Origin: Oscillospiraceae bacterium
GTDB lineage: Bacteria; Bacillota; Clostridia; UBA1381
Direction: 5' to 3'
Length of the DNA: 32,630 nucleotides
Assembly: GCA_015068965.1 (NCBI GenBank)
Contig: SVJN01000009.1
Span: forward strand, 1 to 32,630
Part shown: one piece after another, positions 443-32,490 of the stretch
How the letters are laid out: every line of letters starts with the position of its first letter
How positions within the stretch are numbered: position 1 is the stretch's first letter
The notes under the pieces: model-generated
The model's input: the letters and a program-made list of their open reading frames with translations, nothing else
Databases searched by the model: none
Told to the model about the DNA's origin: nothing
Position numbers and translations under genes: made by a program

Positions 443-480
443 AAAAAATATCTGTGGCAGTTTGTCACAGATATTTTTTT
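443..480 (+). terminator. Rho-independent terminator of the esterase-like gene
   Basis: An 11-bp stem (AAATATCTGTG with CACAGATATTT) closes a short loop and runs directly into seven or more T residues, 5 bp after the stop codon. Confidence 0.85.
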
Positions 481-483
481 GTT

Positions 484-661
484 TTATAGGAAACTTCATT
501 CCTATAAAACAAAAAGAATTGAATGCCCGTGCGAAATTTTCCGCTAATAGCGGAAACGCACATGGGCGTAACAAAGCCGTTATGCTTCTTCTTACCGCTC
601 TGTATCAGTTCAAAGTACACGATAATTTTATGGAGCGGTTGCGGCGAAGCCGCTTTGTTCT
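484..661 (+). repeat. 178-bp structured dispersed repeat, copy 1
   Basis: Nearly identical copies lie at 4403-4580 and 28645-28820, all in the same orientation. Each holds three hairpins: a 5' stem built on TTATAGGAA/TTCCTATAA, a central long hairpin (GCCCGTGCG pairing with CGCACATGGGC, with an inner CCGCTA/TAGCGG stem), and a 3' GCGGTTGCGGCGAAGCCGC hairpin. The extended 5' stem here is perfectly paired over about 17 bp including flanking T and A runs. No convincing protein is encoded; open frames through it lack ribosome sites. It sits just behind the terminator of the upstream gene. Nature unknown: structured RNA or non-autonomous mobile repeat. Confidence 0.85.
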
Positions 662-2704: not shown

Positions 2705-3052
2705 ATGAAGAAACAAACACTTTCAAAAAACTATTTAGAACGGATTCCGATGCGTGCGGAGCATCTTGATTTTCTGAAGGAGGATTCCGGTCTGGTTACC
2801 CTGCTTTTAGAAAATAAGGGACTGTTTAACCGGATTGCGCAACGGTTTTTCAAAAAGCCGAAGGTCAGCCAGATTCACCTGGATGAAATGGGTAGCTTTC
2901 TCTGGCAGTTGATTGACGGAGAAACCGACCTGCTCAAAATGGGTGAATGTGTCCGGGAAAAGTTCGGAGAAACGGCAGAACCGCTTTATGAGCGGTTGGC
3001 AAAGTATTTTCAGATTCTGGATAGCTACGGATTTATTCGTTGGAAGGAATAA
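2705..3052 (+). CDS. PqqD-like small protein coupled to OPT transporter
   Basis: A 115-residue soluble protein. Residues ~60-112 (LDEMGSFLWQLIDG, then a helix, then YFQILDSYGFIRW) match the PqqD fold, a winged-helix-like domain that in RiPP pathways binds leader peptides and hands them to radical SAM or other modifying enzymes. The start is 3 bp after the OPT stop with only a weak ribosome site, suggesting translational coupling. No radical SAM enzyme, precursor peptide or peptidase is visible nearby, so the partner is unknown; a role with the transporter is inferred from synteny only. The N-terminal ~55 residues (basic, RFFKKPK) are unlike classic PqqD. Confidence 0.7.
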   Translation: MKKQTLSKNYLERIPMRAEHLDFLKEDSGLVTLLLENKGLFNRIAQRFFKKPKVSQIHLDEMGSFLWQLIDGETDLLKMGECVREKFGETAEPLYERLAKYFQILDSYGFIRWKE

Positions 3053-3061
3053 GAAAATAAT

Positions 3062-3213
3062 GAGGCTGTTGTGTGAAACATATATCGTGTATAAAAATTC
3101 ATTTTCTTGTAGGGGGCGATGCCCACATCGCCCCGCAATTCGGGCGGATGTGGGCATCCGCCCCTACAATTTTGAATAAAATATACACAAAAAATGTTTC
3201 ACGCAACAGCCTC
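3062..3213. repeat. MITE-like inverted-repeat element, copy 1 (also likely terminator)
   Basis: Terminal inverted repeats (GAGGCTGTTGYGTGAAAC and its complement) enclose a core of two strong hairpins, GGGCGATG/CATCGCCC and GGGCGGATG/CATCCGCCC, whose outer flanks TGTAGGGG and CCCCTACA also pair. A near-identical copy lies at 15187-15337 and an inverted, interrupted copy at 31878-32200. No gene fits inside. The right arm runs into eight T residues, so the element probably terminates the OPT-pqqD transcript. Confidence 0.85.
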
Positions 3214-3288
3214 TTTTTTTTCATCCCCCTCATTTATTTTATACATACAGAATCTGCTGAAAAAACTGAGATTTATATAATATTGATA

Positions 3289-4355: not shown

Positions 4356-4399
4356 CCCCGAAAGCCTTGAAAATACAAAGGTTTCGGGGGTTCTTTTTT
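4356..4399 (+). terminator. Terminator of guaA (left member of a duplicated hairpin)
   Basis: CCCCGAAAGCCTT pairs with AAGGTTTCGGGG around the loop GAAAATAC, followed by a T-rich run. An almost identical hairpin including the loop recurs at 6428-6466. Confidence 0.85.
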
Positions 4400-4402
4400 G
4401 CT

Positions 4403-4580
4403 TTATAGGAAACTTCGTTCCTATAAAGTAAAAAGAATTGAATGCCCGTGCGAAATTTTCCGCTAATAGCGGAAACGCACATGGGCGTAACAAAGCCGTT
4501 ATGCTTCTTCTTACCGCTCTGTATCAGTTCAAAGTACACGATAATTTTATGGAGCGGTTGCGGCGAAGCCGCTTTGTTCT
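4403..4580 (+). repeat. 178-bp structured dispersed repeat, copy 2
   Basis: Same three-hairpin architecture as 484-661 with few differences. In the 5' stem, the base pair next to TTATAGG is C-G here but T-A in copy 1, so pairing is kept although both bases changed. It again follows a terminator on the same strand. Confidence 0.85.
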
Positions 4581-4687: not shown

Positions 4688-4760
4688 ATCTATATGAAAG
4701 TTGAAAATAACATTGACAATTATAAGGATGTTTGATATAATATCTATATGAAAGTTGAAA
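4688..4760 (+). promoter_or_regulatory. abiE promoter flanked by two identical operator-like direct repeats
   Basis: A near-ideal sigma-A promoter (TTGACA 4713-4718, 17-bp spacer, TATAAT 4736-4741) lies between two exact copies of ATCTATATGAAAGTTGAAA (4688-4706 and 4742-4760, 54 bp apart). One copy is upstream of -35, the other just after -10 at the transcription start. AbiEi antitoxins are known to repress their own promoters through paired repeats, so these are probable AbiEi sites, although the published sites are described as inverted repeats. Confidence 0.75.
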
Positions 4761-4772
4761 GTGGGTGAAAAT

Positions 4773-5366
4773 ATGAGTTCAATTGACATATTAAGAGAAA
4801 TATCAAATGAAAATGGCGGATTGATACTGACCAAAGCAGCAGTAGAGAAAGGGATAAGCCGTTCTAATCTTTCCAAGCTATGCGATCATGGTAAAATCAC
4901 AAGAATTGCAAATGGTCAATATGTTATATCAGATGATTTGAATGATGAGTTGTTATCTTTGCAGATACGTTCAAAACACATTGTATTTTCTCATGAAACA
5001 GCATTGTTTCTTAATGGAATATCTGAAAGAACGCCTTTTGAACATACTGTAACTATACCAACATCAAAGACGTTATCGCCATCTATGAGTGAGGAATGTA
5101 AGATTTACTATATCAAGGATGAACTACATGATTTAGGCAAAGTGCAACTTACCACACCGATGGGTAACAAGGTTTGGGCGTATGACATTGACAGAACAAT
5201 TTGTGATATTGTAAGAAGCAGAAGCAGAATGGCTGATGAAACATTTATCACAGCTATAAAGAATTACGCTGCAAGTTCCAATAAGAATCTTGCTAACCTT
5301 AGTTTGTATGCAAGCAAAATGAAAGTCTTATCTCAGGTAAGACAATATTTGGAGGTGTTATTATGA
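4773..5366 (+). CDS. abiEi: AbiEi-family antitoxin / autorepressor of an AbiE toxin-antitoxin pair
   Basis: A 197-residue protein with an N-terminal winged helix (residues ~5-50: ILREISNENGGLILTKAAVEKGISRSNLSKLCDHGKITRIANGQYVI) and the AbiEi C-terminal domain (HIVFSHETALFLNGIS, TTPMGNKVWAYDIDRTICDIVR). AbiEi proteins neutralise the AbiEii nucleotidyltransferase in type IV toxin-antitoxin systems that give abortive phage defence, and repress transcription. An in-frame TTG at 4755 was rejected because it lies within the promoter-proximal repeat; the ATG at 4773 is better placed. The stop overlaps the toxin start by 4 bp (ATGA). Codon use is AT-rich compared with guaA, suggesting transfer. Confidence 0.88.
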   Translation: MSSIDILREISNENGGLILTKAAVEKGISRSNLSKLCDHGKITRIANGQYVISDDLNDELLSLQIRSKHIVFSHETALFLNGISERTPFEHTVTIPTSKTLSPSMSEECKIYYIKDELHDLGKVQLTTPMGNKVWAYDIDRTICDIVRSRSRMADETFITAIKNYAASSNKNLANLSLYASKMKVLSQVRQYLEVLL

Positions 5367-6199
5367 GCAATGCAAAGGCAATGAGCCTGAAAGCTAAAAT
5401 AAGGAATATAGCAAAATTAAAAAATCTTCCGGCACAAGTAATTTTACAGAACTATATGTTTGAGAGATTTCTGAACAGATTGTCTGCTTCGGAATATAAA
5501 GAAAAATTTGTTTTAAAAGGTGGTATGCTTGTAGCTGCTATTGTTGGAATTGATAACAGAGCAACAATGGATTTGGATACCACTCTAAAGAATTTACCAT
5601 TGACGCCTGAAGCAATCGAAAAAGCCTTGAATGAAATATTTGAAATAGATTTAAATGATGATGTGAAGTTTAAATTTAAGGGTATATCACCGATTAGAGA
5701 AGATGATATTTATGGTGGGTACAGAGTGGCATTGGATGCCATATATGAAACCATCGTTACACCTATGACGATAGATGTTTCAACCGGGGATGTTATAACA
5801 CCAAATGCTGTAAAATTTAATTTTACGGGTATATTTGATGATGAGCTCGCATTTGAAGTGTGGGCATATAACATAGAAACAGTTTTGGCGGAAAAGATTG
5901 AAACTATCTTGAGAAGAAGTATGTTTAATACAAGACCAAGAGATTTTTATGATGCTTACATACTTATCACAACACAAAGCTTTGACAAAGCTTTGTTTGC
6001 TGAAGCGTTTAAAAAAACTATTGAGCATAGGGGGACGAGAAATCAGATAAATGATTTTGCTTCTACTATGGAGATTGTTTCAGAGAGTGCAGATCTTAAA
6101 AGAATGTGGAATAACTATCAGTCGCAATTTCCATATGCTAAGGATATAAGCTTCAAGGAAGTATGTAATACGATTATGGAGTTACTCGCTAAAATTTAA
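5363..6199 (+). CDS. abiEii: AbiEii-family nucleotidyltransferase toxin
   Basis: 278 residues, normal for AbiEii/AbiGii-type DNA-polymerase-beta-fold nucleotidyltransferases. Visible motifs: FVLKGGMLV (residues 49-57), ATMDLDTTLKN with the metal-binding D70-x-D72, IDVSTGD (137-143), VLAEKIETILRR with K178, and RPRDFYDAYIL (191-201). The toxin of this type transfers nucleotides and stops growth, with AbiEi as antidote. All recognisable motif residues are present, so the toxin is probably active. Its ATG is in the ATGA overlap with the antitoxin stop, with GGAGG 7 bp upstream. A hairpin follows the stop. Confidence 0.9.
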   Translation: MSNAKAMSLKAKIRNIAKLKNLPAQVILQNYMFERFLNRLSASEYKEKFVLKGGMLVAAIVGIDNRATMDLDTTLKNLPLTPEAIEKALNEIFEIDLNDDVKFKFKGISPIREDDIYGGYRVALDAIYETIVTPMTIDVSTGDVITPNAVKFNFTGIFDDELAFEVWAYNIETVLAEKIETILRRSMFNTRPRDFYDAYILITTQSFDKALFAEAFKKTIEHRGTRNQINDFASTMEIVSESADLKRMWNNYQSQFPYAKDISFKEVCNTIMELLAKI

Positions 6200-11160: not shown

Positions 11161-14100
11161 ATGAAAACAAAAAGAATAATCGGTATACTACTTACACTAA
11201 CAATGATAATTGGCTTATTGCCGATTACGGCAAGTGCGACAGAACAGGACTATTCCGTTGATATTGCATCAGGTGATATAACCCTTGCCGAAACAGACGG
11301 TGTAAAATATGTAAACGGCACAGCCTATGAGGGCGAGCTTACCGTAACCGACAGCGACACAACCATAGCAAATATGCTGACGATTGAAAGCGGTGAGCAT
11401 AATGTCACAATTGATTCCGTCACAGCAAAGCAGATTAAAGTGGCAACAGGTGCAAAACTTAACCTCACCCTTACCGGCGAAAGCACAGTTACACCGTCAG
11501 ATGATGATTTGGCAGCAATACACGTGCCCGAAGGTGCCGAGCTTGTAATAACCGAAAGCTCGCAAGGCTCTGTAAGTGCTACAGGCGGCTCAAAGGCAGC
11601 AGGCATTGGTGGAGCACGCTCTGAAAGCAACGGAAAAATAACCATCGGCGGCGGCACGGTAACTGCTAACAGTGCAAGAGGAGCAAGCATCGGCGGCGGT
11701 CAAAGAGGAAATGGAACAAACATAACCATTTCGGGCGGTACGGTAACTGCTATATGCGGTGGTGACGCAGCGGGTTACGGAGCCGGAATCGGCGGCGGAG
11801 AATATGGCGATGGAACAAACATAACCATTTCGGGCGGTATGGTAACAGCTGAATCCAAGCATTACGGAGCGGGAATCGGCGGCGGTGACAGAGGTGACGG
11901 AACAGATATAACCATAACGGGCGGCACGATTGTTGCTACAGGTTTTCACGGAGCCGGCATCGGCGGTGGTGACTACTACGGTAATGGAAATAACATAATC
12001 ATTTCAGGCGGTACGGTTACAGCTGTGAGTGAAGTTTACGGAGCCGGCATCGGCGGCAGTGACGGTGGTGCCGGAACCAATATAACCATTTCGGGTGGCA
12101 CGATAACTGCCACAGGCGGCTATATGTCGTCTTATAGTATCGGCGGTGGTTCATCAGAAAACATTTTTATTTCACCTGAAGAGTTTTGTGCAATCACAGT
12201 AAAGGAAAATGTGGATGCAGCAGATATCATCAATAAATATACTGAAAAAACAAATCTTGGGAAAGATGTTTTAATGAATCTTAGCTTATATATATACACC
12301 TCCACCTGCGGCGGTAACCACATTGACGAGGACAGCGACCACAAGTGCGACATTTGCGGTGCGTATATTGATGAGTTGCATACTGACGAAGATGATAACC
12401 ATTTGTGTGATGTTTGTGATTATGTAATAACCGAATGTGACTTTGACGAAAACAACGGCTTCTGCATGGTTTGCGGAGCACTTGACGTTCCTGAACTTAA
12501 AGATAACTACTACCAGATTGAAAATGCAGGAAATCTCTATTGGTTTGCAAACCACATCAATACCGTTGACAGAACTGCAAACGCAGTTTTGCTAAATGAC
12601 ATTGACCTTGAAGGAAAGCCTGACGGCACAGGCAGAAAGTGGACGCCCATCGGCTCCACAGGTGAACACAGCAACAACTTCCGCGGTCACTTTGACGGCA
12701 GAAATCACACAATCACAAACCTTTATATTGACGAAACAAGAGCTGGCATTGGCTTGTTTGGAGAAGTGCGTCTTGGTACTGTTGAAAACTTCACTATTTA
12801 CGGCGATGTGAAGCTTTACGGCGATTGCAGCTACGTGGGCGGTGTTATCGGCTCTGCACCCGGTGCAAACGGAACGGATGTTCCGGGCCACAACGGTGCA
12901 ACCATCAGAAACATCACCTCTTATGTGGATGTAACTCTCGTCGAAAACGCTCACGGCTCAAGCTTTGTGGGCGGTTTTATGGGCTATGCGAACCACAAAA
13001 CAATTATCGAAAACTGTTCCTGGTACGGCACACTCGACCTTGGTGCTAACCGTGCAGACAGCGGTGTTGGCGGTCTTGTGGGACGTCTTTATGATGGCTC
13101 TGATGTTAGCATTCGCAACTGCGCAGCTTACGGCACAATCAAGACCTCCTACAAGAGCGGTACCTACGATAATTACGATACCATTTACATCGGCGGTGTT
13201 GTGTCCTTCAGTCCGGCAGGCACAAAGACAGTCCTTGAAAACAATCTTTGGGCAGGAACCATTGAGAATAAAACGGACCTTGGCGAAAAGGCGCATCTCT
13301 CCGCTTTCGGTACATTAAACGGCGAAGAAAGTGTGATAAATTGCTACGCACTTGGTTCTACACCCTACATAACCACCGGAAATCAATATACCGACGACAT
13401 TACTACCGTTACTGCACAGCAGCTTGCAAGCGGTGAGGTTGCGTATCAACTGGGCGATGCCTTCGGTCAGAGGCTCGGCACAGATGCTTTCCCCATACCC
13501 GGCGGACAAAGGGTATATTACGGTTATTACTCCTGTGCGGATGAAGCACCCTCCTACAGTAATAGCGAATTGACAAGCATATCACCCATTGAACATAACC
13601 TGGAATGTGAATATAACAATACGGAGCATACGGTTGTCTGCTCTGGTTGCGGTATGACTGTAACCGGGGAACACAGCTATGACGAAACCACCCTGCAGTG
13701 TATCTGCGGAAAGTTCAATCCGGATACGGGTGCTGCGGCAGTGCTTACCAAAAACGGTACACTTGTTTCGACCTATTCCACTCTGGAAGAGGCGATTGAA
13801 GCGGTAAAAACCGCAACAGAAGCTGATCATGCCGTGGTGACGCTGTTAAAGTCGTTAAGACCGGAAGGCGGTAATCTGAAGATTGAAAGCGGTGTGTTCA
13901 CCTTGGACCTTGGCGGCTATGAAATCAGAAGTGCCGTTCATAGTCTCGGTCTTGTATACATTACCGGCTCTGAAACCAAGGTGACTGTTACAGATTCCGG
14001 CACGGACGGCAGAATTGCTTTTTATGATCATGATTCAAATCATAGTTATGATTACGGTTACGGCACAACAACTGAAATAGAGGATGCTTATGGTATACTC

Positions 14101-15132
14101 GTTGACGGTGCAGATGTTACCGTTCATGGCGGAATCGTCGAAGCCTATGCTACCAGTAATGATCTCTTTACCAATTGTCGCCTTTACTGCCTGTATGCGA
14201 TGAATCATGCGAACATTACCATCACCGGCGGCAGAATGGAAAGTTTGAATATCTCTGCGTATAACACTGTTTACGGTGTGTATGCTACAGACAGTAATGT
14301 AACCATTTCCGGCGGCAGCATTGCATTCAAACCAACCGGTATCGGTAACTATCCGTTGTACGGTATGTATGCGGTGAACAGTAATGTGACGATTTCCGAT
14401 GTAAAAATGAAAGTACAAACGACTAGTTGGAATTCTCATGGGATGTATGTGGTGAACAGCGATGTCACCGTCAGCGGCGGCGAGCTTGATATCTATGGAA
14501 CAGAAATTTACAGCGAAAATTCTGACATAACCCTGACGGTTGCCGAGGGTAACAAAAAGGGAATGTATTCTGCAAACGGTTTTAGTGTTGAGGGAACAAC
14601 ACTTGCCAAAATACTTGGTGATGGCGTGGCTTACTGTCAATTCGATGAGGAGGTTGCACTGACGGAAGATCAGAACACGATTATGGAGGGGATGTTTGGC
14701 GGTAACCCCGTGACGGTAGAGAGATGCACGCATTCCTTAGCGGAATATGTGTGCGATGATACACAACATACCCTTGCCTGCCCTGCCTGCAGCTATGCCA
14801 AAACAGACATTCACGCAGATGAAAACGGCGACAGCATTTGCGATAGTTGCCAAAGGTACTCCGGAACGGAATTTGCAATTTCCGCCTTTGATAAGGAAAT
14901 AAATACCGCAACCGTTCTGATTCCGACCGAGGGAACATACACGGCCGTCTTTGCCGACTATGAGGGCGGAAGGCTTGCTAATCTTCAGCTTGTTCCGGTA
15001 ACGGTAGCTTTTGCTAAGGCTGAGCAGGTAACTGCTGCAATGAACCATGACCTTTCTGCAGGCGACAAGATTATGCTGTGGCAGGATAAGACGGATATTG
15101 TACCGATGTGCGGTGCCTACATCGTGGAATGA
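11161..15132 (+). CDS. Giant exported beta-helix/GLUG-like protein with Cys-rich spacers
   Basis: 1323 residues. Signal peptide with AxA at residues 24-26. Residues ~141-330 hold about seven repeats of the type GAGIGGG..GDGTNITISGGTVTA, forming a right-handed beta-helix-like block. Three Cys/His/Asp-rich segments (~381-440, ~807-853, ~1190-1232) carry H-x-D-x-D-x-x-H-x-CD-x-CG patterns that could bind metal. Residues ~445-750 resemble GLUG-type repeats (NAGNLYWFANHIN, LLNDIDL, GLFGEV), and ~861-1180 form a second beta-helix. No LPXTG, SLH, GW or transmembrane anchor is seen at the C-terminus. The gene starts 57 bp after its SLH neighbour with GGAAAGAAGG, so they are likely co-transcribed. Function unknown. 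Confidence 0.85.
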   Translation: MKTKRIIGILLTLTMIIGLLPITASATEQDYSVDIASGDITLAETDGVKYVNGTAYEGELTVTDSDTTIANMLTIESGEHNVTIDSVTAKQIKVATGAKLNLTLTGESTVTPSDDDLAAIHVPEGAELVITESSQGSVSATGGSKAAGIGGARSESNGKITIGGGTVTANSARGASIGGGQRGNGTNITISGGTVTAICGGDAAGYGAGIGGGEYGDGTNITISGGMVTAESKHYGAGIGGGDRGDGTDITITGGTIVATGFHGAGIGGGDYYGNGNNIIISGGTVTAVSEVYGAGIGGSDGGAGTNITISGGTITATGGYMSSYSIGGGSSENIFISPEEFCAITVKENVDAADIINKYTEKTNLGKDVLMNLSLYIYTSTCGGNHIDEDSDHKCDICGAYIDELHTDEDDNHLCDVCDYVITECDFDENNGFCMVCGALDVPELKDNYYQIENAGNLYWFANHINTVDRTANAVLLNDIDLEGKPDGTGRKWTPIGSTGEHSNNFRGHFDGRNHTITNLYIDETRAGIGLFGEVRLGTVENFTIYGDVKLYGDCSYVGGVIGSAPGANGTDVPGHNGATIRNITSYVDVTLVENAHGSSFVGGFMGYANHKTIIENCSWYGTLDLGANRADSGVGGLVGRLYDGSDVSIRNCAAYGTIKTSYKSGTYDNYDTIYIGGVVSFSPAGTKTVLENNLWAGTIENKTDLGEKAHLSAFGTLNGEESVINCYALGSTPYITTGNQYTDDITTVTAQQLASGEVAYQLGDAFGQRLGTDAFPIPGGQRVYYGYYSCADEAPSYSNSELTSISPIEHNLECEYNNTEHTVVCSGCGMTVTGEHSYDETTLQCICGKFNPDTGAAAVLTKNGTLVSTYSTLEEAIEAVKTATEADHAVVTLLKSLRPEGGNLKIESGVFTLDLGGYEIRSAVHSLGLVYITGSETKVTVTDSGTDGRIAFYDHDSNHSYDYGYGTTTEIEDAYGILVDGADVTVHGGIVEAYATSNDLFTNCRLYCLYAMNHANITITGGRMESLNISAYNTVYGVYATDSNVTISGGSIAFKPTGIGNYPLYGMYAVNSNVTISDVKMKVQTTSWNSHGMYVVNSDVTVSGGELDIYGTEIYSENSDITLTVAEGNKKGMYSANGFSVEGTTLAKILGDGVAYCQFDEEVALTEDQNTIMEGMFGGNPVTVERCTHSLAEYVCDDTQHTLACPACSYAKTDIHADENGDSICDSCQRYSGTEFAISAFDKEINTATVLIPTEGTYTAVFADYEGGRLANLQLVPVTVAFAKAEQVTAAMNHDLSAGDKIMLWQDKTDIVPMCGAYIVE

Positions 15133-15186
15133 GGGGATTTAAAAAAAGTAAGGGACATAAAAAGTCAATCATAATATAAAATGTAA

Positions 15187-15337
15187 GAGGCTGTTGCGTG
15201 AAACGCATATTGTGTATAGAAATTCATTTTCTTGTAGGGGGCGATGCCCACATCGCCCCGTAATTCGGGCGGATGTGGGCATCCGCCCCTACAATTTTGA
15301 ATAAAATATACACAAGAATGTTTCACGCAACAGCCTC
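15187..15337. repeat. MITE-like inverted-repeat element, copy 2
   Basis: 151 bp, almost identical to 3062-3213. Its terminal repeats match perfectly here (GAGGCTGTTGCGTGAAAC). It lies between two converging genes and ends in TTTT, so it may serve as their shared terminator. Confidence 0.85.
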
Positions 15338-15348
15338 TTTTAAATTTG

Positions 15349-24613: not shown

Positions 24614-24636
24614 ACGTCTCCCCCCTTTTTGTTAAG

Positions 24637-24835
24637 TGTAAAATGCAAAGTGCAAAATGCAAAGTTAAGCGACAACCTGTAAATCAAGCATGAAGTGCGA
24701 AGATGAACAGCTTGGTGGAGCTTATGTCAAAACACACAACGATGCGAGCACGAATGTGCGATGAAGAGTTGCATGTGTTGACGGCTCAAAATGCAAAGTG
24801 CAAAATGCAAAGTGCAGAATGCAAAGTGCAAAATG
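24637..24835 (-). repeat. ~190-bp dispersed repeat with TGCAAA-rich flanks, copy 1
   Basis: A core at 24665-24790 is almost identical to the reverse complement of 32335-32462; one difference was noticed. Both copies are bordered by runs of TGCAAAGTGCAAAA-type sequence. It fills the gap between the GNAT gene and rarA, within an otherwise tightly packed operon. Confidence 0.85.
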
Positions 24836-24837
24836 AT

Positions 24838-25314
24838 TTATTGTTGTTCTGATTTTTTCTTTGCACAATCTGCACACCGATGAATCGGTTTTGTCAGGTC
24901 CTTTCTCATCGGCAGGTGCGGGCAGCCTTCCTCTGTGTACAGTTCTCCGCAAGGGGTATAGCCCTGTGTCTGATAAAATCCCACCGCCTGCTCCTGTGCA
25001 TTTAAGCGGATTTCAATCGCACAAAGCTTCACCGCTTTATCCTCCAGCGCACGCATCACCGTATCGCCGACATACTGACGGCGGTACTCCGGTGCAACTG
25101 CCACCCGACCGATGCCAAACACACCGTCTGCAATCGGGAACAGTCTGCCTGCGGCAATCAGCACATCCCCGTCATAGCCGGCAATATGCCATGCAATCGC
25201 ATCGGTATCGTCCCGGTCATAGGAAAAGCCTTGCTCGGTCATAAATACCTGCTCACGCAGTTGTTTTGTGGTCTGATAACCTTCCTCGCCTTGTCTGAGC
25301 TTGAATGTAAGCAT
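24838..25314 (-). CDS. GNAT-family N-acetyltransferase
   Basis: 158 residues. The GNAT core shows LREQVFMTEQGFSYDRDDTDAIAWHIAGYDGDVLIAAGRL, motif A GIGRVAVAPEYRRQYVGDTVMRAL (acetyl-CoA pyrophosphate loop) and motif B AQEQAVGFYQTQGYTPCGELYTEEGCPHLPMRKDL, resembling the ElaA/YjcF branch. The C-terminal tail HRCADCAKKKSEQQ is unusual and has two Cys that could bind metal. Substrate unknown. GGAGG precedes the ATG, 18 bp after the TPR gene. Confidence 0.88.
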   Translation of the reverse strand: MLTFKLRQGEEGYQTTKQLREQVFMTEQGFSYDRDDTDAIAWHIAGYDGDVLIAAGRLFPIADGVFGIGRVAVAPEYRRQYVGDTVMRALEDKAVKLCAIEIRLNAQEQAVGFYQTQGYTPCGELYTEEGCPHLPMRKDLTKPIHRCADCAKKKSEQQ

Positions 25315-28621: not shown

Positions 28622-28644
28622 AAGAATCCCTCCCCAAATTTTAC

Positions 28645-28820
28645 TTATAGGAAACTGCGTTCCTATAAGTAAAAAGAATTGAATGCCCGTGCGAAATTTT
28701 CCGCTAATAGCGGAAACGCACATGGGCGTAACAAAGCGTTCTGCTTCTTCTTACCGCTCTGCATCAGTTCAAAGTACACGATAATTTTATGGAGCGGTTG
28801 CGGCGAAGCCGCTTTGTTCT
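28645..28820 (+). repeat. 178-bp structured dispersed repeat, copy 3 (176 bp)
   Basis: Same architecture as copies at 484 and 4403. The extended 5' stem reads TTTTACTTATAGGAA/TTCCTATAAGTAAAA, differing from both other copies yet perfectly paired. It abuts the ribosome site of the minus-strand HTH gene, in opposite orientation to it. Confidence 0.85.
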
Positions 28821-29055: not shown

Positions 29056-29439
29056 ATGAAAAAGGATTGGAATATTGCAGAAACCGAGTGGCGTGTGATG
29101 GAGGAGCTATGGAAGGAACGGGAGCTGACCATCGGAGAAATCAAAGCCCGGGTTTCGGATATGTGTTGGAGCGATTCGACGGTGAAAACATTAGTCAGAC
29201 GTCTGCACCAAAAGGGGGCAATCGGGATTGACGACAGTAAGGGACAGTTCCGCTATTATCCGATTGTAAGTGAGGAGGCGTGCCGGAAAAAGGAGACGAA
29301 AAAGCTGGTTGACCGGCTCTATCACGGTTCGGTCAGATTGCTGATGGCAAATCTGGTTTCCGAGAGTAAGCTTTCTGAGGAGGAGACCGAGCAGTTAATG
29401 CAGATGATTGATAAAATGGAATCGGGGGATGAAGCATGA
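29056..29439 (+). CDS. blaI: BlaI/MecI/CopY-family repressor
   Basis: 127 residues with the winged-helix MecI pattern NIAETEWRVMEELWKERELTIGEIKARVSDMCWSDSTVKTLVRRLHQKGAIGI and a helical dimerisation end. These repressors bind TACAnnTGTA operators, two of which lie just upstream, and are inactivated by a partner M56 protease. The ATG follows AAGGAGGG. It overlaps the sensor gene by 4 bp. No beta-lactamase is visible, so the regulated output may be elsewhere. Confidence 0.94.
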   Translation: MKKDWNIAETEWRVMEELWKERELTIGEIKARVSDMCWSDSTVKTLVRRLHQKGAIGIDDSKGQFRYYPIVSEEACRKKETKKLVDRLYHGSVRLLMANLVSESKLSEEETEQLMQMIDKMESGDEA

Positions 29440-31691
29440 CGACGATTTTAGAATATACCATGTATCTGAGCGTAACAGCAGTTTTCTTACTTATATTCAA
29501 GCAGATGTTCCGGAAAAAGCTATCTGCAAAATGGCAGGTGTGGGTTTGGGGCATTTTATTGGTACGGCTCTTTGTACCGTTTTTACCGCAGAGCGAGCTT
29601 TCGGTGTTCAATGCGGTGCCTGCGTGGGAGCAGGTGTCGGAGCCGGAAAAAACAACCCCGGTGATGGCTTGGGAGACCGCACCCGAACCGATACCGGACG
29701 GAGAAGTGCCGATGCTATCAGTTTCCTACACCGCACCAAAGGAGGAAAAAATCTCGCCAAAGGTGCTTGCAAAGGGCATCTATTGGGGTGGCATGGCAGC
29801 ATTGTTACTTTACTTTCTGACAGTTTATGGCATTTTTTGTGTCCGGGTAAAACAAGCAAAAAGAATCCGGGAGGAAAAAATCCTGCAGTTATCAGAGCGT
29901 TGCAAAGAACGGTTGGGAATCAGACGGCGTGTGGAGCTGATTTCTTTTGGGGAATGCCCGATGCTGACCGGCATTTTAAGACCGAAAATCATTCTGCCGG
30001 AGGGCTATTCTTCGGAGGAAACCGAGGATATTTTCCTGCATGAGCTATCCCATCTCAAGCACGGTGACCTGCTTTTTATCTGGCTTTCGGTTCTGATTTT
30101 AAGCACGCAATGGTTTAACCCGGTGCTTTGGTACAGCTTCTTTGTTTTCCGCCGGGATATTGAAATGTTCTGTGATGAACGGGTACTGCAATACACCGGC
30201 AACAAGCAGGCATATGCAAAATTACTGCTCCGGACAGCGGTGGGGAAAAACCGGTTTGTGGCAGGCACTACCGCATTGGGAATCGGTAAAAAGGAGCTAC
30301 AGCAAAGAATCCGCTACCTTGCACAGTTTCAGAAGCCGAAGAAAATCTGGGGTGTGGTGATGCTTCTTGCGGCGGCGGTGGTTTCTGTTTTGTGCCTCAC
30401 CAATTCAAAGCAGGACGATTCCATGAGTGGGGAGCGGTATGCACAGTACCTCGGACAAATGCCGGGTGCGATTATGGCAGAGCTGGATTATGCGGATGCA
30501 GAGCGAGTGGTGTTTCATTATATAGACGGGTTATTTGTCTATGATTTAAAAGCCGGTCAAATCGTACAGAGCTTTGATTTGCAAAAGCTCAATTGTGCAC
30601 CGCATCAGCAGGGAAGTCACGGGCTGGAGGTCAGAGCTTCGGCAGATGGCGGAAGTGCGTTACTTATAAACTATGGCGTGGCAGAGGAAATCAAGGATTT
30701 TGACAATTATATGCTTGATTTCGATTCCGGCAAGGCACGTACTACAAGAACAACAGAGCTTGAAAACGGATTTTCTGCGTTGCAGGAGACCTACACCACC
30801 GTCCCGGATGCGGTTGGGTGGTTTAGCAATACTTGTGCATCGGACGGTAATCGGATTTATTATCTGACGGTGGAGGATGCCTCCGAGCTGCGGAATCTGA
30901 AGCTGATGATTTGTGATATGGATGGAACACCTTTGGAGCAGAGATTTTTGTTCCGCCCGGAGGTGACCGCCTATAGAGGAGAGGGATTCCGACTAATGCT
31001 GCCGACCGATGCGGTTGAGGTGGGAAGCTGGTATCGGAATATGCCGATACGAAGCAATGTGATTTTACTTGATGAGCGAATCTGGATGAAGCCGGATGAA
31101 CTGGACGGAAAAGCGAAAACTGTGAGTGAGGGAGCAACGGTAACCAGAATTTACGGCTACGGTGTCCCGGTGCGGAGGATGGAGCAGAATGGTGTGATTT
31201 CCTATTTTATCCGTTACCCGGATGCAGGCGGTGATATGCTTGTGCTTTCCTTTGCAGAGGGTGCGTTTTCCGATGCGGATGTAGCCATGATGCTAAAAAG
31301 CCTGACGTTTGAGGTCTCCGAGCTGTATGAACAGACGAAAGCATATCTGCAGAAGGTATTTCATCGGGCATATTCACCGATGTATGAAATCCTGGATTTG
31401 CAGATTTCCGGCTGGGTGCAGGAGGGGGATACGGCGACCTTTGATTACACCAGAGTGGATAAGAATTATGACCGTGACCCGGATACGGTGGAGTATATCA
31501 TAAAAGCCAGAGAATCCGGCAATCAGGAATATTACGAAACCTTGAAACGGGAGTATTCAGAGCCGAAGGAGGGGAATTTTCATATGAAGGTGGTTTCCCA
31601 AAACGGAGAACTGACAATTTATAAAGGAGAGTATCTCATACCTGACGGAGAACAATGGCGGCAGCTGATTTTCTTCGAGGAGCCGTCGTAA
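29436..31691 (+). CDS. blaR1: BlaR1-type M56 membrane protease with unusual C-terminal sensor
   Basis: 751 residues. The N-terminal ~320 residues hold membrane helices and the M56 zinc protease with H202-ELS-H206 and LKHGD, plus WFNPVLWYSFFVFRRDIEMFCDE. A further helix (WGVVMLLAAAVVSVLCLT) leads to ~400 extracellular residues. These lack the STxK/SxN/KTG motifs of penicillin-binding BlaR1 sensors and instead look beta-rich (DAERVVFHYIDGLFVYDLKAGQ, DGNRIYYLTVEDAS, GDMLVLSFAEGAFSDADVAMMLKSLTFEV). It probably senses a signal other than beta-lactams and cleaves the adjacent repressor. Function inferred from family. Confidence 0.88.
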   Translation: MTTILEYTMYLSVTAVFLLIFKQMFRKKLSAKWQVWVWGILLVRLFVPFLPQSELSVFNAVPAWEQVSEPEKTTPVMAWETAPEPIPDGEVPMLSVSYTAPKEEKISPKVLAKGIYWGGMAALLLYFLTVYGIFCVRVKQAKRIREEKILQLSERCKERLGIRRRVELISFGECPMLTGILRPKIILPEGYSSEETEDIFLHELSHLKHGDLLFIWLSVLILSTQWFNPVLWYSFFVFRRDIEMFCDERVLQYTGNKQAYAKLLLRTAVGKNRFVAGTTALGIGKKELQQRIRYLAQFQKPKKIWGVVMLLAAAVVSVLCLTNSKQDDSMSGERYAQYLGQMPGAIMAELDYADAERVVFHYIDGLFVYDLKAGQIVQSFDLQKLNCAPHQQGSHGLEVRASADGGSALLINYGVAEEIKDFDNYMLDFDSGKARTTRTTELENGFSALQETYTTVPDAVGWFSNTCASDGNRIYYLTVEDASELRNLKLMICDMDGTPLEQRFLFRPEVTAYRGEGFRLMLPTDAVEVGSWYRNMPIRSNVILLDERIWMKPDELDGKAKTVSEGATVTRIYGYGVPVRRMEQNGVISYFIRYPDAGGDMLVLSFAEGAFSDADVAMMLKSLTFEVSELYEQTKAYLQKVFHRAYSPMYEILDLQISGWVQEGDTATFDYTRVDKNYDRDPDTVEYIIKARESGNQEYYETLKREYSEPKEGNFHMKVVSQNGELTIYKGEYLIPDGEQWRQLIFFEEPS

Positions 31692-31877: not shown

Positions 31878-32200
31878 GAGACTGTTGCGTAAATATTTTT
31901 GTGTACATTTTATTCAAAAATTGTAGTGCAATGTAACAACTAAAAGTTGACAATCCCTCAGTCACTTCGTGACAGCTCCCTTTACACAAGGGAGCCGGAC
32001 ATGGGAGCCTTCAAGCCCTCCTTGTGTAAAGGAGGGTGGCACGCAAAGCGTGACGGGAGGATTGATTTGTGTAAAGTTTTAGTTGATACAAGATAGTAGG
32101 GGCGGATGCCTACATCCGCCCGAATGCGGGGCGATGTTGGCATCGCCCCCTACAAGAAACTGAATTTTTATACACAATATGTATTTCATGCAACGTTTTT
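31878..32200. repeat. MITE-like element, copy 3, inverted and split by an insertion
   Basis: Outer ends resemble copies at 3062 and 15187 in reverse orientation (GAGACTGTTGCG..., core GTAGGGGCGGATGCC, right end TTTCATGCAACG). The core hairpin stems are intact, with altered loops. It is split at TTGTAG by the element at 31927-32095. Confidence 0.8.
31927..32095. mobile_element. Nested ~169-bp inverted-repeat element with GTAG duplication
   Basis: The insert has related inverted ends (TGTAACAACTAAAA and TTTTAGTTGATACA), inner hairpins GTCACTTCGTGAC, CTCCCTTTACACAAGGGAG, CCCTCCTTGTGTAAAGGAGGG and CACGCAAAGCGTG. It is flanked by GTAG on both sides (31923-31926, 32096-32099), as expected for target-site duplication on insertion into the older element. 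No coding capacity. Confidence 0.75.
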
Positions 32201-32309
32201 TTGTTCTTTGTAAGGCTCTTGCATTGTTCATAAATTGTTTTTATTTTTTACACAAGGGCGAAACGAAAGTATTGTATGATAAGGATAAAATGCATCAGCA
32301 TATCGTTTT

Positions 32310-32490
32310 GCACTTTGCATTTTGCATTTACCATCATTTTGAGCCGTCAACACATGCAACTCTTCATCGCACATTCGTGCTCGCATCGTTGTGTGTTTTG
32401 ACATAAGCTCCACCAAGCTGTTCATCTTCGCACTTCGTGCTTGATTTACAGGTTGTCGCTTAAATTTGCATTTTGCACTTTGCACTTAAA
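32310..32490 (+). repeat. ~190-bp dispersed repeat with TGCAAA-rich flanks, copy 2
   Basis: The core at 32335-32462 is the reverse complement of 24665-24790. The flanking TTTGCATTTTGCACTTTGCA tracts end 2-3 bp before the ribosome site of the next gene. Confidence 0.85.

What the first reader, a model, noticed from the sequence alone, without database searches (positions are those of the whole stretch)
484..661. 178-bp repeat family with co-varying stems
Three copies (484, 4403, 28645) are nearly identical, yet the basal 5' stem differs between them as GTTTTATAGG/CCTATAAAAC, CTTTATAGG/CCTATAAAG and TTTACTTATAGG/CCTATAAGTAAA, each still paired; loops vary freely (ACTTCA, ACTTCG, ACTGCG). Compensatory change argues for a maintained hairpin. 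With two further internal hairpins and identical orientation, this may be a structured RNA element or a hairpin-dependent mobile DNA.
Basis: seen in the sequence. Interest (0 to 1): 0.6.

Follow-up and report, generated by a model that had tools for sequence, protein, structure and literature searches.

The report
Mobile hairpin element mimicking gene signals
The 178-base repeat is one branch of an apparently undescribed family of small mobile DNA elements in Clostridia that land exactly behind gene signals (terminators, ribosome-binding sites or promoters), carry a copy of that same signal at their far end, and base-pair with the DNA next to them.

Summary
The host genome (2.3 Mb draft) holds at least 59 copies of the conserved core, and the hairpins covary. 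The element is a compact three-hairpin unit: H1, a conserved bulged core H2, and H3. A covariance model of H2 finds relatives in 41 of 291 Clostridia-level (same-class) genomes but, besides the host, in only one of a 299-genome phylum sample; Rfam has no match. A congener's empty site shows clean insertion after TTTTTA with no target-site duplication. Three target types occur: after terminator T-runs (the window's lineage), after Shine-Dalgarno sequences, and after promoter -10 boxes. In each, the element's 3' end repeats the same kind of signal. The H1 3' arm matches the native flank copy by copy, significantly in several lineages. Because -10 boxes are not transcribed, this pairing most likely acts in DNA. 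Best reading: a non-autonomous, probably single-strand DNA transposon with IS200/IS605-like guide logic. No gene-bearing copy was found, and neither Y1/RAYT nor IS110 transposases track with it, so the mobilising enzyme is unknown. Guide use versus template-switch palindrome repair cannot be separated here.

The parts
482..660 (+). Element copy 1 (179 nt); borders by homology to the copy with an empty site (5' CTTTATAGG-equivalent, 3' CTTTGTTC)
   Evidence: border rule
475..481 (+). Target flank of copy 1 (TTTTTTG), paired with the H1 3' arm CAAAAAG at 510-516
447..480 (+). Native intrinsic terminator (ATATCTGTG..CACAGATAT + T-run) behind which copy 1 sits
   Evidence: sequence
475..516 (+). 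H1: flank plus element 5' end paired with the left arm
   Evidence: covariation
523..569 (+). H2: conserved bulged core hairpin
570..659 (+). H3: AACAAAGC (570-577, right arm) paired with GCTTTGTT (652-659); inner helices GCTTC/GAAGC and ACCGCTC/GAGCGGT
641..660 (+). Terminator-like 3' end GCGGCGAAGCCGCTTTGTTC, similar to the target and used as target by tandem copies elsewhere in the genome
   Evidence: sequence; tandem copies
4401..4579 (+). Element copy 2
4356..4399 (+). Native intrinsic terminator of the guaA-C-like gene (CCCCGAAAGCC..GGTTTCGGGG + T-run) preceding copy 2
   Evidence: sequence; gene
28644..28819 (+). Element copy 3 (no clear terminator hairpin upstream; flank CCAAATTTTA, one base shorter in each H1 arm)

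Best explanation
The repeat is one lineage of a family of small non-coding mobile DNA elements of Clostridia (151 bp in G078, 179 bp here, about 280 bp in a long subtype). The top strand folds into H1-H2-H3. H2 is the conserved recognition hairpin. The arm 5' of H2 is complementary to the DNA left of the insertion plus the element's own 5' end; the arm 3' of H2 is complementary to the element's own 3' end. Folding therefore brings both junctions next to H2, as guide sequences bring cleavage sites together in IS200/IS605 transposons. A strand-specific nuclease or transposase supplied in trans (not identified) is proposed to excise the folded single strand and rejoin it 3' of a target that pairs with the left arm. 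Each lineage aims at a host expression signal (terminator T-run, Shine-Dalgarno, or -10 box) and carries the same kind of signal at its 3' end, so that the host gene keeps a signal and a new target is created. Shown: the family, its structure, its placement, clean insertion without target-site duplication (type A, one locus), tandem copies, flank-arm complementarity, signal mimicry. Inferred: the single-strand intermediate, the guide role of the arms, the trans-acting enzyme, the benefit of mimicry.
For: H2: 16 of 18 pairs with both-side changes on 93 distinct sequences, 190 cells against 47.7 shuffled. Whole element. Empty site G077 ..TGTTTTTA^GTGAAC against G078 ..TTTTTTTA^[151 bp]^GTGAAC, no duplication. 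Type A placement: 49 of 50 non-tandem host-genome copies behind a T-rich hexamer; 70% against 19% of other TTTTTR sites behind a stable hairpin, Fisher p = 6e-14. Type B behind Shine-Dalgarno, congeners without it at purC, queC. Type C behind -10 boxes. Flank-arm pairing: 34 of 52 against 21.7, 0 of 20,000 shuffles; type B second flank base 29 of 41 against 16.5, 0 of 20,000; six-copy lineage of another family with runs of 5-12 matched bases, mean 9.2 against 4.0, p = 0.001. Tandem copies starting at the previous copy's 3' end in types A and B. IS608 comparison: PMC5934647.
Against: No transposase gene in any of about 100 copies examined. Y1_Tnp in 28 of 41 positive and 144 of 250 other genomes, absent from copy-rich G322 and G304; RAYT 25 of 41 and 133 of 250. 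In IS608 guides are tetranucleotides 5' of each end hairpin, not long arms on both sides of one central hairpin. One type B lineage has a fixed arm with no copy-by-copy match to the flank (p = 0.7). The 3' border of type B is not settled. Only one type A locus gave a close, clean empty site.
Confidence: 0.6

Rival explanations
1. The copies are mobile, but the match between arm and flank arises after insertion by template-switch (quasi-palindrome) correction during replication, which turns imperfect inverted repeats into perfect ones. The arms are then not guides.
For: Compensatory changes also occur well inside H1; matches of up to 12 bases in near-identical copies are longer than random target choice by a fixed arm would give; the known mutational process (own knowledge) makes exactly such changes.
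Against: H2 and inner H3 covary too, across families where palindrome repair is unlikely to keep bulges; the fixed anti-Shine-Dalgarno arm of one lineage is not corrected to its flanks; it does not explain why each lineage sits behind one signal.
Confidence: 0.3
2. A cis-acting RNA regulator (riboswitch-like: H2 as sensor, H3 as expression platform) that was spread by transposition and is kept for regulation.
For: Type B H3 can sequester the Shine-Dalgarno and offers an alternative hairpin (sequence); at least 52 copies upstream of different genes in G067; strong RNA-type covariation.
Against: Type A copies lie behind terminators and between convergent genes; type C pairs an untranscribed -10 box; genes behind type B copies are diverse; the congeners aligned at purC and queC lack the element; no Rfam family.
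Confidence: 0.12
3. A non-autonomous member of IS200/IS605 or of the REP/RAYT system, moved by a resident Y1 HUH enzyme.
For: Insertion 3' of a fixed target, no duplication, hairpins, complementary arms; host genome has one RAYT-like gene.
Against: No association with Y1 or RAYT presence; the host RAYT lies among different repeats (GTAGGGAACGAC..); H2 has no GTAG tag; no gene-bearing copy.
Confidence: 0.2
4. A minimal IS110-type element consisting of a bridge RNA and ends.
For: Guide-like pairing with both junctions and similar size (own knowledge of bridge RNA).
Against: IS110 transposase in 13 of 41 positive and 93 of 250 other genomes; none in the host genome or in copy-rich G102.
Confidence: 0.04
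5. A remnant of a group IIC intron, which also inserts behind terminators.
For: Same kind of target as type A, same orientation, no target-site duplication.
Against: No Rfam group II hit; ends CTTTATAGG..GTTC, not GTGYG..AY; the only reverse transcriptase found in the host genome is retron-like; types B and C do not fit.
Confidence: 0.02

Closest known systems
IS200/IS605 transposons (IS608, ISDra2) and non-autonomous derivatives
   Same: Insertion 3' of a short target that stays as left flank, no duplication, subterminal hairpins, element sequences complementary to left target and to own 3' end (PMC5934647)
   Different: No transposase gene, one central core hairpin with long arms on both sides, targets are expression signals copied at the 3' end, no link to Y1 genes
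REP / REPIN elements moved by TnpA-REP (RAYT)
   Same: Small, chromosomal, high copy, bulged hairpin, domesticated-enzyme logic (PMC8266576)
   Different: REPs are 20-40 nt with a GTAG or CGTC tag; here three hairpins, no such tag, no RAYT association
Bacterial MITEs, BOX, RUP and SPRITE of pneumococcus
   Same: Short non-coding repeats, insert into one another, SPRITE is terminator-like (PMC10969869)
   Different: No terminal inverted repeats or target-site duplication here; insertion exactly behind an expression signal with the signal copied; different hosts
Group IIC introns
   Same: Insertion behind terminators in one orientation (own knowledge)
   Different: No intron core, other ends, other targets in sister lineages

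Membership tests
IS200/IS605 family (non-autonomous) | Insertion 3' of a fixed target without target-site duplication | tested here: met
IS200/IS605 family (non-autonomous) | Guide sequences complementary to left and right cleavage sites | tested here: inconclusive
   Complementarity met; position and length differ; cleavage not testable
IS200/IS605 family (non-autonomous) | Y1 HUH transposase encoded or resident | tested here: not met
   No gene-bearing copy; no association with PF01797
REP/RAYT | GTAG- or CGTC-tagged 20-40 nt palindrome with RAYT in the genome | tested here: not met
   No tag at H2; RAYT 25 of 41 against 133 of 250
Classical MITE | Terminal inverted repeats and target-site duplication | tested here: not met
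   Ends CTTTATAGG and CTTTGTTC; empty site shows no duplication
IS110 bridge-RNA element | DEDD/IS110 transposase available | tested here: not met
Group II intron | Curated covariance model match and intron ends | tested here: not met
   sequence of ends
Any Rfam 15 family | Match at gathering score | tested here: not met
   None in the window at gathering score; only sub-threshold, chance-like hits to the element and its relatives in permissive scans
Riboswitch / RNA leader | Position in the transcript of the regulated gene | tested here: not met
   Not for types A and C; type B fits

The most novel reading that the evidence does not exclude
A new class of mobile DNA: elements without a gene, whose two arms read a host expression signal by base pairing, which insert behind it, copy the signal at their own far end so that insertion is neutral, and whose left arm is rewritten from the target at each insertion, all moved by an undiscovered strand-specific recombinase.
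Probability: 0.25. Interest if true: 0.93.

Novelty: new variant of a known kind. Interest (0 to 1): 0.78.

Why it matters
It would show selfish DNA avoiding damage to its host by target mimicry at three kinds of expression signal. It offers dozens of natural copies with matched arm and target, which makes DNA-guided insertion testable, and it points to an unidentified transposition enzyme in a large bacterial class. For annotation, it explains recurrent leader and terminator hairpins that could otherwise be taken for riboswitches.

Tried and rejected
Rfam at gathering and permissive thresholds: no family. Phages, plasmids and IMG/VR patterns: no match. Group II intron idea: rejected on ends, Rfam and lack of a group II reverse transcriptase. 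Y1/RAYT and IS110 as resident mobilisers: no co-occurrence. Gene-bearing copies: searched by missing or distant arms, none. Literature searches for such elements behind terminators or Shine-Dalgarno sequences: nothing relevant (64 and 73 were rejected queries). A regular expression for the 3' end failed and was redone; the lists for the f22/f50 and type C lineages took in wrong-strand or unrelated matches and are not relied on (f22 redone, type C not retested). The idea that the right arm pairs with native 3' flank in type B was dropped, since congeners suggest that most of that spacer is element sequence.

Full report
Observation. The three window copies lie at about 482-660, 4401-4579 and 28644-28819, all on the + strand. 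Folding of copy 1 gives z = -7.25 as RNA and -7.41 as DNA.

Anatomy. H1 is an AT-rich hairpin whose 5' arm begins in the flanking DNA. H2 is a bulged hairpin, GCCCGTGCGAAATTTTCC..GGAAACGCACATGGGC. H3 is a long, interrupted stem that ends in GCGGCGAAGCCGCTTTGTTC. On 44 copies of the host genome, 10 of 55 pairs show changes on both sides, against 4.0 in shuffles and at most 2 in slid controls. On 93 distinct H2 sequences from many genera, 16 of 18 pairs do, with 190 cells against 47.7 in shuffles. A long subtype carries about 104 extra bases between H2 and H3.

Distribution. The H2 model hits 32 of 95 genomes of the order and 41 of 291 of the class, in 25 genera, but only the host genome and one other of 299 in a phylum-wide sample, which also serves as a specificity control. 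No copies were found in phages, plasmids or viral contigs with the queries used.

Placement. Type A (the window's lineage and others) follows terminator T-runs: 49 of 50 non-tandem copies of the host genome have at least 4 T in the six bases before the flank base, and 70% are preceded by a hairpin of -8 kcal/mol or better, against 19% of other TTTTTR sites (Fisher p = 6e-14). Type B (G067, at least 52 core copies, those read being of this type; others, including a tandem pair on G000 contig C26) sits between a Shine-Dalgarno and a start codon. Type C sits directly after a -10 box such as TATGGTATAAT. In each type the element's 3' end carries the same kind of signal: terminator-like hairpin plus T-run, Shine-Dalgarno plus spacing, or -10 box. 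Tandem copies begin at the 3' end of the previous copy.

Insertion. For a type A copy in G078 the congener G077 has the uninterrupted site: TGTTTTTA^GTGAAC against TTTTTTTA^[151 bp]^GTGAAC. There is no target-site duplication, and the flank base is native. For type B in G067, congeners carry purC and queC leaders without the element; the exact 3' border there is uncertain. One congener (G064) has only the element's 3' end before purC, perhaps a scar.

Arm and flank. In the host genome the first flank base and the matching base of the H1 3' arm form Watson-Crick pairs in 34 of 52 copies, against 21.7 by shuffling, 0 of 20,000. In type B the second flank base does so in 29 of 41, against 16.5, 0 of 20,000. 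Unbroken pairing runs are longer than shuffled in the host lineage, the G078-genus lineage and the G067-type lineage, and in a six-copy lineage of another family with 5-12 matched bases. These shuffles do not remove shared ancestry among copies. The lineage with AACGTGAAAG..CTTTCACGTT mostly has a fixed GCCTCC arm and no copy-by-copy match (p = 0.7), which looks like a general anti-Shine-Dalgarno.

Interpretation. Pairing with -10 boxes cannot be a property of the transcript that starts there, so the common denominator is most likely DNA structure. The topology (target flank, H1, left arm, H2, right arm, H3, own 3' end) and the insertion behaviour resemble IS608, where guide sequences in the transposon pair with cleavage sites and the target is retained on the left (PMC5934647). 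REP elements with RAYT are the other relative in mechanism (PMC8266576). The enzyme is missing, however: Y1_Tnp occurs in 28 of 41 positive and 144 of 250 other genomes, RAYT in 25 of 41 and 133 of 250, IS110 in 13 of 41 and 93 of 250. The host's own Y1 gene is RAYT-like and lies among a different repeat, and its only detected reverse transcriptase is retron-like. The arm-flank match may reflect guided targeting, rewriting at insertion, or later quasi-palindrome correction; the present data do not decide.

Verdict. The finding stands and grows: a widespread, structured, mobile family without a match in Rfam or in the papers searched. Mobility and structure are well supported; the guide mechanism is a moderate inference; the enzyme is unknown. 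Absence from the searched literature is not proof of novelty, since most subscription journals and all preprints are missing from it.

Noticed in passing
window 3048-3217, 15173-15341, 31891-32194: A second repeat family: GTAGGGGCGATGCCCACATCGCCCC-type palindromes framed by GTTTCACGCAACAGCC; it looks like a GTAG-tagged REP cluster and also serves as landing site for some element copies elsewhere.
   Followed up: partly
L062 1450-1944 (G000 contig C88): A lone RAYT-like Y1 transposase gene among TGTAGGGAACGAC..GTCGTTCCGC repeats, a classical RAYT/REP arrangement.
   Followed up: partly
L061 1252-2328 (G000 contig C64): A retron St85-like reverse transcriptase; an element copy lies on the same contig.
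   Followed up: no
window 4755-6199: An AbiEi/AbiEii-type toxin-antitoxin pair directly downstream of copy 2.
   Followed up: no
window 29056-31691: BlaI/BlaR1-like regulator and sensor pair downstream of copy 3.
   Followed up: no
window 11161-15132: A 1323-residue reading frame with 87-99 bp internal repeats.
   Followed up: no
window 24630-24846 and 32293-32487: A 153-bp inverted pair (98% complementary) with short AATGCAAAGTGC repeats.
   Followed up: no
L288 (G064, purC leader): The 3' end of a type B element without H1 and H2 in front of purC: a possible excision or deletion scar.
   Followed up: partly
L152 (G080 contig C89): A copy nearly identical to the host lineage in another genus: horizontal transfer or a contaminating contig.
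   Followed up: no
L023, L031, L039, L121, L129 upstream flanks: Five copies share about 100 bp upstream ending in a hairpin and T-run: another mobile terminator-like repeat used as landing site, or co-mobilised.
   Followed up: partly
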